Of a DNA stretch of 64,000 bases, positions 7,004-12,577 are shown one piece after another. The notes beneath the pieces are model-generated. The model saw only the letters and a list, made by a program, of their open reading frames with translations. It was not told the origin of the DNA and made no database searches. A program made the position numbers and the translations under genes. Source of the DNA: Streptomyces cinnamoneus (GTDB lineage: Bacteria; Actinomycetota; Actinomycetes; Streptomycetales; Streptomycetaceae); assembly GCF_002939475.1 (NCBI RefSeq), contig NZ_PKFQ01000001.1:1178001-1242000 (forward strand), given 5' to 3'. Every line of letters begins with the position of its first letter. The stretch's first letter is position 1.

Positions 7004-7249
7004 TCGTCAAGGAATAGCGGTGACCCATCGCACCGTTCCGTGGTTCACCCGGCCAGGGGCGCGGCACACGTCACTCGTTGCCCCCCCCTGATCGCACGCG
7101 GTCGCCGCATGACCTGGCAGGACATCGTCTTCGGGCCCGGCCTCGGCCTTCCGCAAGCCGCCCGGCAGGGCGACGAGCGGCTGGCCGGCCCGCACGACGT
7201 CCAGCCCGGAGGGAAGCGGGTGAGGGCGGAGGGCCGCGCCGCCTCCTGA

Positions 7250-7285
7250 GGCAAGGAAACTTGCCCCGATTTCAGCTGAAATCGG
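7250..7285. promoter_or_regulatory. Hairpin plus 20-bp perfect palindrome upstream of the repeat protein
   Basis: GGCAAG (7250-7255) and CTTGCC (7260-7265) form a GAAA-loop hairpin. It abuts CCGATTTCAGCTGAAATCGG at 7266-7285, which equals its own reverse complement over all 20 bases. The palindrome lies about 115 bases before the repeat-protein start and looks like an operator for a dimeric regulator. Further down, CGACTACC occurs twice (7313-7320, 7334-7341). The rest of 7004-7398 shows no gene. Confidence 0.5.
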
Positions 7286-7398
7286 ACCGCGTCTCGTCCG
7301 TCTGGCCCCAATCGACTACCGGATGGAGCAATACGACTACCCTGCGGATGCTCCAGCCGGGTCGCCGGGTGAACCTCGGAACGAAGGAGGTACACCCA

Positions 7399-8121
7399 AT
7401 GAAGTCAATTCGTACCGCTCTCTGCGGCACTCTGACGGCAGTCGCCGTCTGCGCGGCCCCCGCCGCCTACGCACTGGGTTCGTCCACCGTCCCGGTCAAG
7501 GCGGGTCAGAGCAGCGTCGTGGTCAAGCACGGTGACCACGGCAACTGCGACGACGACCATGGCCGCGGCGGCCACGGCCGTCACGACCGCGACCACGACC
7601 GTGACGACTGCGACGACGATCACGGGCGTGACCACGACCACGGTCGGGACAACGACCACGGCCGTGACCACGAGGGTCGTGACGACCATGGCCGTGACCA
7701 CGAGGGTCGTGACGACCACGGTCGGGACAACGACCACGGGCGTGACCACGAGGGTCGTGACGACCACGGGCGTGACCACGACCACGGGCGTGACCACGAG
7801 GGTCGTGACGACCACGGGCGTGACCACGACCACGGTCGGGACAACGACCACGGCCGTGACGACCACGGGCGTGACCACGGCCGGGACGACCACGGCCGGG
7901 ACCACGGCCGGGACGACCACGGTCGCGACCACGAGGGACGCCACAACGACCACGGCCGGCCCCACCACCACGCTCACGCGGGTGGCGGCGCCACTGCTTC
8001 CGTGGCCGCGCCGGAGTCCTCGGTGCCCGAGACTCCCGCGCTCGCCCTCGCCGGTGCCACGGTGGGCATCGCCGGTGGTCTGATCTGGTACCGCCGTCGC
8101 GCCAACGCGGCCAAGCGTTGA
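7399..8121 (+). CDS. Secreted Asp-His-Gly-Arg repeat protein with C-terminal cell-wall/membrane anchor
   Basis: ATG at 7399 follows GAAGGAGG, giving 240 residues. Residues 1-26 are a signal peptide (MKSIRTALCGTLTAVAVCAAPAAYA). Residues about 50-190 are almost entirely D, H, G, R, N and E in tandem units such as DHGRDHEGRD and DDHGRDNDHG, a disordered, highly charged, His-rich segment likely to bind metal ions. A HAHAGGGATAS linker leads to a sorting-signal-like end: VPETP (209-213), 17 hydrophobic residues (ALALAGATVGIAGGLIW) and the basic tail YRRRANAAKR. That arrangement of pentapeptide, helix and positive tail is the sortase substrate plan, although the fifth residue is Pro rather than Gly. 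A class F sortase gene begins 19 bases downstream. No known family is recognised for the repeat part. Confidence 0.8.
   Translation: MKSIRTALCGTLTAVAVCAAPAAYALGSSTVPVKAGQSSVVVKHGDHGNCDDDHGRGGHGRHDRDHDRDDCDDDHGRDHDHGRDNDHGRDHEGRDDHGRDHEGRDDHGRDNDHGRDHEGRDDHGRDHDHGRDHEGRDDHGRDHDHGRDNDHGRDDHGRDHGRDDHGRDHGRDDHGRDHEGRHNDHGRPHHHAHAGGGATASVAAPESSVPETPALALAGATVGIAGGLIWYRRRANAAKR
7551..7962 (+). repeat. Tandem GACCACGG-type coding repeats
   Basis: This is a run of degenerate 12-base units (GACCACGGNCGT and variants) encoding DHGR, with longer 33-48 base units repeated several times, for example DHEGRDDHGR. The repetition also opens long valine/threonine frames on the other strand, which are shadows. 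Confidence 0.85.
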
Positions 8122-8140: not shown

Positions 8141-8941
8141 ATGTCAGAAGAGCGCACAGGCGGTGGCTCCCGCCGCCTGCTGACAGGGGTGGCCTGGTTG
8201 GCACTGATGCTGGCCCTGTGGCTGTGGGGCCACGACACCGTCGAGGATCCGATAACCGCGGTTCCGAAGACCGGTGACGTCGCCGCCACAGGACACCCTC
8301 CTGCGCCCGGCCTGCCCCCGGTACACGAACCGTTGCCGGGGGCGGGCCCCCAAACCCTGGCCATCAAGGCCCTGGGGCTCAAGGCCCCCATCGAGCCCCA
8401 CGGGCTGGACGCCCTGGGCGGGGTGGAACCACCCCCGTACGAACGGCCCAACACCGTGGCCTGGTACCAGAACGGCCCGCCGCCCGGCAGCACCGGCGCC
8501 GCGGTGCTCGTCGGTCACGTGGACACCAAGAGTTCGCCGGCCGTCTTCTACGAGCTCAGCAACGTCAAACGCGGTGCGAAGATCGACGTGACGCGCAACG
8601 ACGGGTCCGTCGCCGAGTTCACCGTCGAGAACGTGGCCACCGTCGAGAACAACCACTTCGACGCCGACAAGGTCTACGGAGCGGCCGACACCAAGCGTGC
8701 CGAACTTCGACTGATCACCTGTGGCGGCGAGTACGACCGGGCCCACCGCGAGTACAAGGCCAACGTGGTGGTCACGGCCTATCTGACCGGAACCCGGCAG
8801 ACCGCCCCGGACAGCGGCGGCACGGCCGGCTCCTCGAAGCCCCCCGCACCCTCGCCCTCTCCCGCGCTCACACCGGCACCGTCCGGTACCCCGGAGGGGG
8901 ACGAGGGCGGCCAAGGCGGCCAGGAGGAAGAGGAGAACTGA
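8141..8941 (+). CDS. Class F sortase
   Basis: This 266-residue protein has an N-terminal membrane anchor (LLTGVAWLALMLALWLWG, residues about 12-30), a linker, and the class F sortase fold. The catalytic residues are visible: His126 in VLVGHVDTKSSPAVFY, Cys194 in LRLITCGGEY and Arg203 in AHREYKANVVV. A proline/serine tail and acidic end (GGQEEEEN) follow the domain, which is unusual. Family members are transpeptidases or endopeptidases that act on exported proteins at the outer face of the membrane. The gene begins 19 bases after the repeat protein with its VPETP-hydrophobic-basic end, so that protein is the obvious candidate substrate. Confidence 0.88.
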   Translation: MSEERTGGGSRRLLTGVAWLALMLALWLWGHDTVEDPITAVPKTGDVAATGHPPAPGLPPVHEPLPGAGPQTLAIKALGLKAPIEPHGLDALGGVEPPPYERPNTVAWYQNGPPPGSTGAAVLVGHVDTKSSPAVFYELSNVKRGAKIDVTRNDGSVAEFTVENVATVENNHFDADKVYGAADTKRAELRLITCGGEYDRAHREYKANVVVTAYLTGTRQTAPDSGGTAGSSKPPAPSPSPALTPAPSGTPEGDEGGQGGQEEEEN

Positions 8942-9045: not shown

Positions 9046-9736
9046 AGTGCCGCAGGTGGGCCAGGCGCGCGTCGTCGAGCGGGTACGGGCGCTCGTCCGG
9101 CAGCAGCGACGCGGCCCCGTCGAGGTCCCCTTCCCGCACCCGCCGGTGCACCTCGGCCGCCAGCGCGGTGACGTCCGTGATGCCGACGGTCCACTCGTCC
9201 GCGTACCGGCGCGACGCGTCACCCGCGAGGCCCAGTTGGAGCGACCGGTGCGGCAACGGGTTCAGGCGCAGGTCCCGTTCGGGGTCCCACTGGACCCGGG
9301 CGGGGGAACGCTTCAGCTGACGCTTCCACGCGGTCTCGTCGGGATGGATCCGGCGGTCGTAGTGCGACAGGCAGGAGTGGTCCAGGGCCCACTCGAAGCC
9401 CTCGCGGCTGATCTCCACGGCCAGGACGGTCTCCTGGCCCTCCTTGGTGCCCCAGCCGCAGCGGTACATCATCCACAGGAACGACGGCTTGATCCATGTC
9501 ATCCGGTCGCGCTTCCAGCTGGCGGGGAAGCGGCCGTCGCGGGCGGCCGGCACCCCGATCCCGGGGGTGTACGCCTGGTAGACGGTGATCGTCGAGTCCG
9601 TGTGCCGGGCCCGGATCTGACGGGCGGGCAGCGCGGGGCCGGCCGCGTCGGCCGGGGGGATCGCGGGGGTCGGGTGGGTCGCGGGGGCCGGCCGGGTCCC
9701 GGCGGCCGGGTGGATCGGGTTGTTCACGCGGCCCAT
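9044..9736 (-). CDS. DUF4291 domain-containing protein
   Basis: The frame is 230 residues. After a proline/alanine-rich N-terminus (about 38 residues, possibly partly untranslated) the whole DUF4291 domain is present: RQIRARHTDSTITVYQAYTP, RMTWIKPSFLWMMYRCGWGTK, FEWALDHSCLSHYD, VQWDPERDLRLNPLPHRSLQ and DEWTVGITDVT. The family is widespread in actinobacteria and other bacteria. I know of no established activity, and its conserved Arg, His, Tyr and Trp residues suggest an enzyme. The gene stands alone between a sortase and a DUF779 gene and shares a terminator with the former. Confidence 0.85.
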   Translation of the reverse strand: MGRVNNPIHPAAGTRPAPATHPTPAIPPADAAGPALPARQIRARHTDSTITVYQAYTPGIGVPAARDGRFPASWKRDRMTWIKPSFLWMMYRCGWGTKEGQETVLAVEISREGFEWALDHSCLSHYDRRIHPDETAWKRQLKRSPARVQWDPERDLRLNPLPHRSLQLGLAGDASRRYADEWTVGITDVTALAAEVHRRVREGDLDGAASLLPDERPYPLDDARLAHLRH

Positions 9737-9855
9737 TGTCAGCGCCGTCGCCCCGGGTGACCAGCCGATTTCCGAGCCGCCCCCTTCCCTCCCTGGCGAT
9801 CAGCTCGCCCCTGCGGGCAGGCTGTCCCCTCTCAGGACAGTGAGGAGGAAACCCC

Positions 9856-9897
9856 ATGAACCCGCACTTACGCCGGACGCCCGGGCACCGCCGATGA
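9856..9897 (+). CDS. 13-residue leader ORF with a TTA codon, coupled to the DUF779 gene
   Basis: GAGGAGG at 9842-9848, the best ribosome-binding site in the region, is placed seven bases before ATG 9856. The frame reads MNPHLRRTPGHRR and stops with the TGA of the ATGA at 9894-9897, whose ATG starts the DUF779 gene. Codon 5 (9868-9870) is TTA, the rare leucine codon read by the developmentally controlled bldA tRNA in Streptomyces. The downstream start has no ribosome-binding site of its own, so its translation probably depends on ribosomes finishing this leader. The coding assignment is an inference from these features. Confidence 0.5.
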   Translation: MNPHLRRTPGHRR

Positions 9898-10394
9898 ACG
9901 GGCACACCGGCGTCACCGACGCCTCCGAAGTCTCCCGCATCGCCCTCACCCCGAGCGCCGCCGAACTGCTCCGCAAGCTCCATGAGAAGCACGGGCCCCT
10001 GATGTTCCACCAGTCCGGTGGCTGCTGTGACGGCAGCTCGCCCATGTGCTACCCGCGCGGCGAGTTCCGCACGGGCGGCTCCGACGTCCTGCTGGCCGAG
10101 CTCACCGTCGAGGGCGTGGCGGAGCCGGTCGGCTTCTGGATGGCCGCCGACCAGTTCGAGCGATGGCGCCACACCCACCTGACGGTGGACGTGGTGCCGG
10201 GCCGTGGCAGCGGCTTCTCCCTGGAGGCACCCGAGGGGGTGCGCTTCCTCATCCGGTCCCGGCTGCTGACCGACCGGGAGGCACGGCTCCTCGACGCGCC
10301 CGCACCGGCGTCCGGGGGCCCGGCCGCCCTCGGCTACGACGCGTCCGCCAGCGACAGCGTGTGCAGGCGCTCGGGCGGGCCGGGCCGCGCGTAG
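9894..10394 (+). CDS. DUF779 family protein
   Basis: ATG at 9894 overlaps the leader stop as ATGA, giving 166 residues. The DUF779 core is complete: IALTPSAAELLRKLHEKHGP, the Cys-rich HQSGGCCDGSSPMCYP, FRTGGSDVLLAEL, the HTHLTVDVVPGRGSGFSLE block and RFLIRSRLLTD. The family is about 120-130 residues and is commonly encoded beside acetaldehyde dehydrogenases, so an accessory role in aldehyde metabolism is assumed. The clustered cysteines suggest a metal or redox site. The last 35 or so residues are not family-like, and 61 bases of the 3' end overlap the convergent cyclic-di-GMP gene. Confidence 0.8.
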   Translation: MNGHTGVTDASEVSRIALTPSAAELLRKLHEKHGPLMFHQSGGCCDGSSPMCYPRGEFRTGGSDVLLAELTVEGVAEPVGFWMAADQFERWRHTHLTVDVVPGRGSGFSLEAPEGVRFLIRSRLLTDREARLLDAPAPASGGPAALGYDASASDSVCRRSGGPGRA

Positions 10395-12577
10395 TACCAG
10401 CCCTGCGCCGTGTCGCAGCCGAGCAGCCGCAGGTGGTCGGCCTGCGCGCCCGTCTCCACGCCCTCGACCGTCACCGACAGGTCGAGGGTGTGGGCGAGCG
10501 ACACGATGCCTTCGACGATCTTGACGTCGACGGGATCGGCGGGGGCGCGCTGCATGCCCCGGGTGAAGGAGCGGTCGAGCTTGAGGGTGCTGACCGGGAG
10601 GCGGCGCAGGTACGACAGGTTCGAGTAACCGGTGCCGAAGTCGTCGAGGGCGATGTCGACGCCCAGGTCGGCCAGCTGGCGCAGGTGGCGCAGCTCGTCC
10701 TCGTCGGCGCCGATGAGCGCGTTCTCGGTGACCTCCAGGCACAGGGCCGAGGGGTCGAGCCCGGCGTTGCCCAGGATGGCGACGGTGTCGGCGACCAGGC
10801 CCGGGTGGCGGAGCTGGGAGGGCGAGAGGTTGACGTTGACCCGCAGGGGTGCGGGTTCACCGCCCTCGGCGGCGCGCCAGGAGCGGGCCTGGCGGGCGGA
10901 CTCCTCCAGCACCCAGCGGCCGAGCGGCACGATCAGTCCGGTGCTCTCGGCGAGCGGGATGAACTGGTCCGGCCCGAGCACCCCGTGCACCGGGTGCAGC
11001 CAGCGCACGAGCGCCTCCGCGCCCCGGACGGTGCCGTCGGCGAGCCGTACCAGCGGCTGGTACTCGATGAAGAACTCGCCGTGGTCCAGGGCGGCGGGCA
11101 GGCAGGTGGTGAGGCTGTGCCGGGCGATGGCGCGGGCGTCGCAGTCGGCGTCGGCGTGCTCGTAGCGGTTTCCGCCGGCGGCCTTGGCGCGGTACATCGT
11201 GATGTCGGCGCTGCGCAGCACCTCGGCGGCGCCCGGTTCGCCGGCCACGCCGTCGACGATGCCGATGCTGGCCCGTACGGACAGGTCGCGGCCGCCCACG
11301 TGGATGGGCTCGGCCAGGGCGGCCAGCATGCGCCGGGCCAGGGCGGTCGCGTCGCCGGAGGCGGCGGGCCCGGTGCTCAGGGCGACGAACTCGTCCCCGC
11401 CCAGCCGGGCCACGAGTTCGTGCGGCGCGCGGACGCAGGAGCGCAGCCGCTCGGCGACGGCGACGAGCAGCTGGTCGCCGACGGCGTGGCCGAGGCTGTC
11501 GTTGACGGCCTTGAAGCCGTCTATGTCGAGGTAGCACAGGCCGAAACGGGCGCCGGCCGCGTCCGGGCCGCCCTGCCGGACCCCCTCGCCGGACGTCGCG
11601 GTCTGGAGCGCGCGGTCGAGGCGTTCGAAGAACAGGGTGCGGTTGGGCAGGCCCGTGAGTGAGTCGTGGGTGACTTCGTAGCGCAGCCGCTCCCGCAGCA
11701 GCCGTCGCTCGGTGATGTCCTGCATGACGGCGAGCTGGTACCGGGGAGCGCCCGAGGCGTCGCGCAGGAGCGAGACCGAGAGGTCGGTCCACAGGACGCT
11801 GCCGTCGCTGCGGTAGTACGGCTTTTCGAGGCGGTAGTGGTCGCGGTCCCCGCGGACCAGCTCGCGGTAGAGGCTCCAGCACTCCGGCGGGTCGTCGGGG
11901 TGGACCAGCTCGCCGACGTTGCGGCCGGTCACCGACTGGCCGAGCATCCGGACGAGCGCGTCGTTGACGTCCGTGATGCGGCCCTGGACGTCCGCGACGC
12001 CGACGCCGACGGCGGCGCCTTCGAAGACGGCGCGGAAGCGCGCCTCGCTGTCGCGCAGCGCCTGCTCGGTCTCGGCCTGGGCGGCCCGCGCGACGCGGGT
12101 GACGGCCTCCTGCTCGGCGAGGGTGCGCTCCCGCAGGGCGCGGGCGAAGCCCGCGGCCACCGCGTGCTGGAGGCGTGAGCAGCGGGCGCGGCTCTCCTCG
12201 ACGGGCATGGGTGTGCCGGGCGGGCAGTACAGCACGAGGTAGGCGTCGATGACGCTGAGGATCAGCGGCAGGACCTCGGGGTCGGTGCAGTTGGCGCGCA
12301 CGAGCGCGGCACCGACCTCGACCGCCGGTTTGGAGTCGAAGGGCCGGGCGTGGAGGGCGTCGCGCAGGACGCGGGCGAGGGGCACGAGGTGGCGCTCGAA
12401 CTCGGCACGCGTCATGGCGGCCGCCGTCCCCGGGTAGATGGCTCGGCCCCAGATGGCGGCGAACCGAAACAATCGGTCGTCCCGGGAACCGGAGCCGAGG
12501 ACTTCCACGGTCGCGTACGAAACCGGGGCGGCGGTTTGATTCACGGACAGCATTCTGCCACTCGGCCTCGGGGTCAC
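10334..12577 (-). CDS. PAS-GGDEF-EAL cyclic-di-GMP turnover protein
   Basis: This 747-residue protein starts at GTG 12577; ATG 12553 is an alternative, and neither has an ideal ribosome-binding site. Residues about 30-165 form a conserved actinobacterial N-terminal segment. A PAS/PAC sensor follows (LRDSEARFRAVFEGAAVGVGV ... LAVMQDITERRLLRERL, about 180-310), then a diguanylate cyclase domain with an intact RLGGDEFVAL motif (about 320-480) and a phosphodiesterase domain with GAEALVRW and the metal-binding EVTEN and DDFGTGYS motifs (about 490-740). Both signatures are intact, so it could make and degrade cyclic-di-GMP, the signal that controls BldD and sporulation in Streptomyces. It has no membrane segment. 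It belongs to the Cdg/Rmd group, but I cannot assign the exact orthologue. Confidence 0.9.
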   Translation of the reverse strand: MTPRPSGRMLSVNQTAAPVSYATVEVLGSGSRDDRLFRFAAIWGRAIYPGTAAAMTRAEFERHLVPLARVLRDALHARPFDSKPAVEVGAALVRANCTDPEVLPLILSVIDAYLVLYCPPGTPMPVEESRARCSRLQHAVAAGFARALRERTLAEQEAVTRVARAAQAETEQALRDSEARFRAVFEGAAVGVGVADVQGRITDVNDALVRMLGQSVTGRNVGELVHPDDPPECWSLYRELVRGDRDHYRLEKPYYRSDGSVLWTDLSVSLLRDASGAPRYQLAVMQDITERRLLRERLRYEVTHDSLTGLPNRTLFFERLDRALQTATSGEGVRQGGPDAAGARFGLCYLDIDGFKAVNDSLGHAVGDQLLVAVAERLRSCVRAPHELVARLGGDEFVALSTGPAASGDATALARRMLAALAEPIHVGGRDLSVRASIGIVDGVAGEPGAAEVLRSADITMYRAKAAGGNRYEHADADCDARAIARHSLTTCLPAALDHGEFFIEYQPLVRLADGTVRGAEALVRWLHPVHGVLGPDQFIPLAESTGLIVPLGRWVLEESARQARSWRAAEGGEPAPLRVNVNLSPSQLRHPGLVADTVAILGNAGLDPSALCLEVTENALIGADEDELRHLRQLADLGVDIALDDFGTGYSNLSYLRRLPVSTLKLDRSFTRGMQRAPADPVDVKIVEGIVSLAHTLDLSVTVEGVETGAQADHLRLLGCDTAQGWYYARPGPPERLHTLSLADAS

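What the first reader, a model, noticed from the sequence alone, without database searches (positions are those of the whole stretch)
9856..9897. TTA-containing leader peptide coupled by ATGA to the DUF779 gene
The strongest ribosome-binding site (GAGGAGG) serves a 13-codon ORF whose fifth codon is TTA and whose stop overlaps the start of DUF779. The DUF779 start has no site of its own. This could place an otherwise TTA-free gene under bldA control through its leader, a regulatory use of TTA that I do not know to be described.
Basis: partly seen in the sequence, partly recalled or inferred. Interest (0 to 1): 0.55.

Follow-up and report, generated by a model that had tools for sequence, protein, structure and literature searches.

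The report
Rare-codon leader in front of DUF779
A 13-codon mini-gene carrying the developmentally controlled rare codon TTA overlaps the start of a gene of unknown function in a Streptomyces, and several related species keep that TTA at the same spot even where the mini-gene has become part of the gene itself, which suggests that the codon acts as an on/off gate.

Summary
In detail: a GAGGAGG-served 13-codon ORF (MNPHLRRTPGHRR, codon 5 = TTA) ends in an ATGA overlap with DUF779, whose own start has almost no ribosome-binding site. Among 132 distinct DUF779 loci examined, 7 have TTA within 25 codons of a start with a five-base SD, and all 7 have it at codon 5. They lie in one group of related Streptomyces. 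In four species TTA sits in an out-of-frame leader (10 or 13 codons) that keeps the ATGA overlap; in three it is codon 5 of DUF779 itself. What follows TTA differs in sequence, length and frame; SD and TTA do not. No DUF779 body of the 132 contains TTA. bldA is present in the genome. Best explanation: TTA just behind the only good ribosome-binding site makes DUF779 synthesis depend on bldA tRNA, directly in the in-frame species and through translational coupling in the leader species. Limits: TTA is absent from other members of the group; one relative has a leader without TTA; no bldA mutant was tested; a DNA-element reading is not excluded. A bldA polarity effect on an overlapping gene was already proposed for S. 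coelicolor SCO6638/SCO6637, so this is a new variant, not a new kind.

The parts
9793..9824 (+). promoter-like pair CTGGCGATCAG ... GGGCAGGCTG (TGGCGA, 18 nt, CAGGCT)
   Evidence: TGGYG-N17-21-CAGGCT occurs upstream of 18 of 132 distinct DUF779 loci, including all 7 TTA loci; 0 hits in the same stretches reversed. The consensus scan for sigma-70 promoters found none, so the promoter role is inferred.
9842..9848 (+). Shine-Dalgarno GAGGAGG of the leader
   Evidence: sequence; predicted anti-SD pairing -12.7 kcal/mol
9856..9897 (+). 13-codon leader ORF MNPHLRRTPGHRR
   Evidence: counterparts in L006, L032, L137
9868..9870 (+). TTA, codon 5, the codon read by the bldA tRNA
   Evidence: same codon position in 7 loci; tRNA-Leu(TAA) gene present in this genome
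9894..9897 (+). ATGA overlap of leader stop and DUF779 start
   Evidence: ATGA also in L006, L032, L137 and in L142
9894..10394 (+). DUF779 protein, 166 aa, no TTA in its body

Best explanation
Ribosomes load only at the strong SD of the leader. They read ATG AAC CCG CAC and then need the UUA-reading tRNA made by bldA. When that tRNA is scarce they stall at codon 5, do not reach the leader stop, and the DUF779 start, which has almost no SD of its own, is not used. When the tRNA is available (thought to be late in growth, from published bldA work) ribosomes reach UGA and reinitiate at the overlapping AUG. The leader thus brings DUF779, whose own codons contain no TTA, under bldA control. In sister species the same TTA is codon 5 of DUF779 itself. 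Shown: the sequence anatomy, conservation of SD and TTA in seven loci, the two architectures, bldA in the genome. Inferred: translation of the leader, coupling, and dependence on bldA.
For: 7 of 132 distinct DUF779 loci have TTA near a start with a five-base SD, all at codon 5. Leader form with ATGA in L001, L006 (same sequence as the Streptomyces cinnamoneus record L031), L032 and L137; in-frame form in L005, L007 (same as the S. olivoverticillatus record L044) and L138. After TTA the leaders differ in sequence and length (13, 10, 13, 13 aa) but keep ATGA. The seven differ at 19/68 to 33/66 four-fold sites, apart from two sister pairs at 9/74 and 10/74. In the DUF779 core 0 of 97 amino-acid-invariant codons keep an A or T third base in all seven, and none of 86 Leu codons is TTA. 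A/T-ending codons keep that base in 36 of 291 ordered comparisons between non-sister loci (my sum; 1 of 33 from the window's gene, at most 4 of 7, L138 with L007), while TTA is kept in all seven. TTA occurs in 0 of 132 DUF779 bodies. Anti-SD pairing is -11.6 to -14.5 at the four leader starts, against -2.5 to -3.4 at three DUF779 starts and -7.9 at the fourth, L032. bldA tRNA gene present.
Against: No TTA of this kind in 125 of 132 loci, including a nested set of nine species of the same group (98% support on rpoB) and L002, L009, L142. L142 has a 15-codon leader with ATGA and no TTA, so the leader does not require TTA. The seven loci were chosen for having TTA, and the deep branches of the trees are poorly resolved, so gains and losses cannot be counted. 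A second TTA mini-ORF of this genome, upstream of a MarR-type gene, is no clean negative control: in 6 of 10 genomes the aligned ATG opens an ORF with TTA, at codons 7 to 13, and in 2 more the same bases are kept out of frame; it shows that a TTA behind an SD can be conserved as a DNA element. The DUF779 start in L032 has a weak SD-like site (-7.9). The fold of the junction in this species is no stronger than shuffles (z -0.5). No expression data.
Confidence: 0.6

Rival explanations
1. Relic: the start region of DUF779 is free to vary. An ancestor with an in-frame N-terminal extension holding TTA suffered a frameshift, and reinitiation at ATGA rescued the gene. Coupling is real, but TTA is a leftover with little effect.
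For: In-frame versions exist in L005, L007, L138. Start regions differ in frame and length across the group, and L142 has a leader without TTA while its sister L009 is in frame.
Against: A/T third bases elsewhere in the gene are seldom kept between these lineages (36 of 291 ordered non-sister comparisons), yet TTA is kept in all seven, while codons 2-4 each changed in at least one and everything after codon 5 changed.
Confidence: 0.2
2. The conserved stretch ATGAAYCCGCACTTA is a DNA or RNA element (operator or RNA-binding site), and TTA as a codon is incidental.
For: CCGCACTTA is shared by five of seven loci. Upstream of a MarR-type gene of the same genome TTACTTCACGA is kept as DNA in 8 of 10 genomes, in frame in some and out of frame in two, so such conservation without a codon role happens.
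Against: L005 and L138 read AACGCACGCTTA and AACGCACACTTA and L006 has ATC at codon 2, so the neighbours vary while TTA and its distance from ATG do not; TTA is in frame with the SD-served ATG in 7 of 7. No strong fold.
Confidence: 0.1
3. DUF779 is translated independently of the leader, from its own AUG or from an upstream start in its frame, and the leader is silent.
For: The DUF779 frame is open upstream for at least 77 codons in all four leader species, and L001 has an in-frame GTG at 9840. L032 has a weak SD-like site at its DUF779 start.
Against: In L006 the 80 upstream in-frame codons listed hold no ATG, GTG or TTG, so ATGA is the one in-frame start shared by the four in that range. The strong SD is placed for the leader ATG in all four.
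Confidence: 0.07
4. Stalling at UUA provokes a -1 frameshift that fuses the leader to DUF779, giving a protein like the in-frame species make.
For: DUF779 lies in the -1 frame relative to the leader and that frame is open through the leader in all four leader species.
Against: I see no slippery heptamer at TTA (by eye, no scan run), so short an open frame is unsurprising at this G+C content, and ATGA already gives a simpler route.
Confidence: 0.03

Closest known systems
SCO6638/SCO6637 of Streptomyces coelicolor (PMC2000904, passages read)
   Same: A TTA gene whose stop overlaps the start of the next gene; RNA and protein of both lower in a bldA mutant; the authors suggest possible translational coupling and polarity from stalling at UUA.
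   Different: There the TTA gene has a product of its own that was seen in the proteome; here the upstream ORF has 10-13 codons with a non-conserved tail and looks like a pure leader.
TTA/bldA control of Streptomyces genes such as adpA (review PMC4255298, passages read)
   Same: Translation gated by the rare UUA codon; the review notes a bias of TTA towards gene starts in streptomycetes.
   Different: TTA is in the regulated gene itself (in adpA between the two domain-coding segments); here, in four species, it is in a separate overlapping ORF.
Leader ORFs with rare codons coupled to the main gene, e.g. uof-fur (review PMC11550727, passages read)
   Same: A short upstream ORF with slowly read codons whose expression is coupled to the main ORF.
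   Different: The signal there is iron; here the presumed signal is the supply of one developmental tRNA.

Membership tests
TTA/bldA-controlled genes of Streptomyces | in-frame TTA in an ORF with a ribosome-binding site | tested here: met
   codon 5 of an SD-served ORF; translation itself not shown
TTA/bldA-controlled genes of Streptomyces | bldA tRNA-Leu(UAA) gene in the genome | tested here: met
TTA/bldA-controlled genes of Streptomyces | TTA conserved between species | tested here: inconclusive
   7 of 132 loci, one group, same codon position; absent from other members of the group
TTA/bldA-controlled genes of Streptomyces | expression falls in a bldA mutant | not testable with these tools
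   needs a mutant
translationally coupled leader ORF | leader stop overlaps the gene start, gene start lacks its own SD | tested here: met
   ATGA in four species; weak pairing at the DUF779 start in three of them, -7.9 in L032
translationally coupled leader ORF | gene expression needs leader translation | not testable with these tools
   needs reporter fusions
transcription attenuator leader peptide | terminator between leader and gene | tested here: not met
   no terminator-like site in 9600-10450; the ORFs overlap

The most novel reading that the evidence does not exclude
Selection in this Streptomyces group acts on TTA at a fixed distance behind the ribosome-binding site, whichever protein it falls in: a stand-alone TTA mini-ORF works as a detachable bldA gate that makes a TTA-free gene bldA-dependent by translational coupling.
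Probability: 0.48. Interest if true: 0.62.

Novelty: new variant of a known kind. Interest (0 to 1): 0.5.

Why it matters
bldA targets are usually listed by looking for TTA inside annotated genes (inference from the papers seen). A TTA in an unannotated 10-13 codon leader would be missed. If the gate works, some bldA-dependent genes without TTA could be direct targets, and a small portable leader could give a Streptomyces gene bldA timing. The group also offers a natural comparison: the same codon in leader and in in-frame form.

Tried and rejected
A wider survey for SD-served TTA mini-ORFs in the same genome (pattern GGAGG-N4-10-ATG-N0-30-TTA; other start codons and weaker SDs not covered): 32 hits against 35 for the pattern read backwards. 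I picked out 8 in-frame cases by hand; one search confirmed the 7 others in fetched stretches. Two of those 7 are short ORFs. One lies antisense in a CoA-ligase-like gene (name from recall). The other, 14 codons, lies upstream of a MarR-type gene (family from recall) and ends 55 bases before it. I first took the latter as a negative control that relatives do not keep; on recount that was wrong. From the aligned ATG, 6 of 10 genomes have an ORF with TTA, but at codons 7, 8, 9, 12, 12 and 7+13; in 2 the same bases are out of frame; 2 have none; ORF lengths run from 14 to 34 codons. I read it as a conserved DNA element between genes and no longer use it as a control. For this I lowered the main explanation from a drafted 0.62 to 0.6, the novel case from 0.5 to 0.48, and raised the DNA-element rival from 0.08 to 0.1.

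RNA structure at the junction: no signal. Consensus promoter and terminator scan: nothing. DUF779 and rpoB trees do not resolve the deep order of the TTA species, so I could not say whether the leader or the in-frame form came first.

Looking for more members of the group: genus, family and order draws share genomes. In the genus draw 241 of 392 genomes have a DUF779 match, but only matches that became loci were read: 145 loci in all, 132 distinct after 13 duplicates were dropped. The scan for TTA covered starts 41-260 bases upstream of the conserved core with one of four five-base SDs. 27 loci were taken by me for the DUF779 tree and 2 of these (L033, L040) dropped for a stop inside the aligned stretch.

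Full report
Observation. The window sequence at 9842-9897 holds GAGGAGG, 7 bases, and ATG AAC CCG CAC TTA CGC CGG ACG CCC GGG CAC CGC CGA TGA; the TGA overlaps the ATG of a 166-aa DUF779 protein. The predicted pairing with the anti-SD of 16S rRNA (its letters typed from recall) is -12.7 kcal/mol at the leader start and -3.4 at the DUF779 start.

Relatives. I collected DUF779 loci from public genomes: 145 loci, 132 distinct. A search for any start with a five-base SD and TTA within 25 codons found 7 loci, all with TTA at codon 5. Four are leaders that end in an ATGA overlap with DUF779: the window (MNPHLRRTPGHRR), L006 with the same sequence as S. cinnamoneus record L031 (MIPHLSGHPS), L032 = Streptomyces sp. 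UNOB3_S3 (MNPHLGRRRGHRP) and L137 (MNPHLCRQHGRHP). Three are in frame, so TTA is codon 5 of DUF779: L005 (MNARLPDVSRIALTP), L138 (MNAHLPDVSRIALTP) and L007, the same as S. olivoverticillatus record L044 (MNPHLSPNKPEN...). No locus of the 132 has TTA in the body of DUF779.

Is TTA kept by selection? Apart from two sister pairs (9/74 and 10/74) the seven differ from one another at 19/68 to 33/66 four-fold sites. In the DUF779 core 97 codons (Met and Trp included) are invariant in amino acid in all seven; 41 of them have an invariant third base, and none of these is A or T; of 86 Leu codons none is TTA. A/T-ending codons keep that base in 36 of 291 ordered comparisons between non-sister loci and in 14 of 28 between sisters (my sums); from the window's gene it is 1 of 33, and the highest non-sister value is 4 of 7 (L138 with L007). 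Against this TTA is kept in all seven, while codons 2, 3 and 4 each changed in at least one and the stretch after TTA differs in sequence, length and frame. This points to TTA itself. The caution is that the seven were selected for TTA, and that it is missing from other members of the group.

Group. All seven share with eleven other loci an upstream pair TGGYG-N17-21-CAGGCT (18 of 132; 0 in the reversed control). The 21 loci of the group that I compared (19 distinct, TTA or not) have the same convergent GGDEF-EAL neighbour, so they are orthologues in place. An rpoB tree of 22 genomes puts the TTA species as poorly resolved deep branches, with nine no-TTA species in a nested set (98%) and L142/L009 (100%) and L002 outside, but the deep nodes have only 32-67% support. 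One origin of TTA and loss in the nested set is the simplest reading; the tree does not decide it. L142 has a 15-codon leader with ATGA and no TTA, while its sister L009 is in frame: leaders can arise in this start region without TTA.

Survey of the same genome. There are 32 GGAGG-ATG-TTA arrangements, no more than with the pattern read backwards (35); 8 are in frame and only the DUF779 leader is a short ORF overlapping a gene start. So this is not a widespread device in this genome under that definition. A second SD-served TTA mini-ORF lies upstream of a MarR-type gene. Its bases are conserved, but as DNA: 6 of 10 genomes have an ORF with TTA from the aligned ATG, at codons 7 to 13, 2 have the same bases out of frame, 2 have none. 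That is a warning that conservation of a TTA behind an SD need not mean a codon role. The DUF779 case differs in that TTA is in frame and at codon 5 in 7 of 7.

Mechanism. The likely sequence of events is loading at the leader SD, waiting at UUA for bldA tRNA, arrival at UGA, and reinitiation at the overlapping AUG. The DUF779 start has little SD in three of the four leader species; in L032 a weak GAGGG could help (-7.9). Within the 80 codons listed no upstream in-frame start is shared by the four. No terminator-like site was found, which argues against attenuation. Translation and bldA dependence are inferred. That UUA-containing transcripts are thought to be confined to stationary phase is from the abstract of PMC4932002 as shown in a search listing.

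What is in print. In the held open-access library I searched bldA or Streptomyces with leader peptide, translational coupling, upstream open reading frame, translationally coupled, short ORF, uORF and small ORF. Some of these lists were cut: 30 of 57, 20 of 26 and 15 of 60 papers shown. In what was shown I saw no TTA-containing leader peptide described. I read passages, not whole texts, of seven papers: PMC4255298, PMC5015266, PMC2000904, PMC11550727, PMC4681348, PMC5332605, PMC8914203. The nearest precedent is SCO6638/SCO6637 (PMC2000904): a TTA gene overlapping the next gene, both reduced in a bldA mutant, with coupling and polarity suggested. Most subscription papers are not in that library, so absence is not proven. 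DUF779 appears in two papers of the library, neither opened.

Verdict. It is a new variant of known bldA control.

Noticed in passing
   Followed up: partly
L184 and L185-L193, upstream of the MarR-type gene at G000:C1:1511073: Strongly conserved stretch with palindrome-like repeats (CTTGAGATCGTCAAG, TTCAGGTAGTCAAG and variants) in the ten genomes compared, perhaps operators of the adjacent regulator; a TTA mini-ORF overlaps it in 6 of 10.
   Followed up: partly
L179 (G000:C1:4378100-4378900): A 179-codon ORF with TTA at codon 3 behind a GGAGG site ends in ATGA, possibly another TTA gene overlapping the next gene, like SCO6638/SCO6637; the downstream frame was not examined.
   Followed up: no
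window 9793-9824 and 17 other loci: A promoter-like pair TGGYG-N17-21-CAGGCT found only in this group (18 of 132); in L037 the apparent DUF779 ATG lies 6 bases behind it, as in a leaderless mRNA.
   Followed up: partly
window 10334-12577, minus strand: PAS-GGDEF-EAL protein convergent to DUF779; a relative lies next to DUF779 in all 21 loci compared.
   Followed up: partly
window 7078-8121, plus strand: ORF with long DHGRDHD-type repeats just ahead of a sortase-domain gene at 8141-8941.
   Followed up: no
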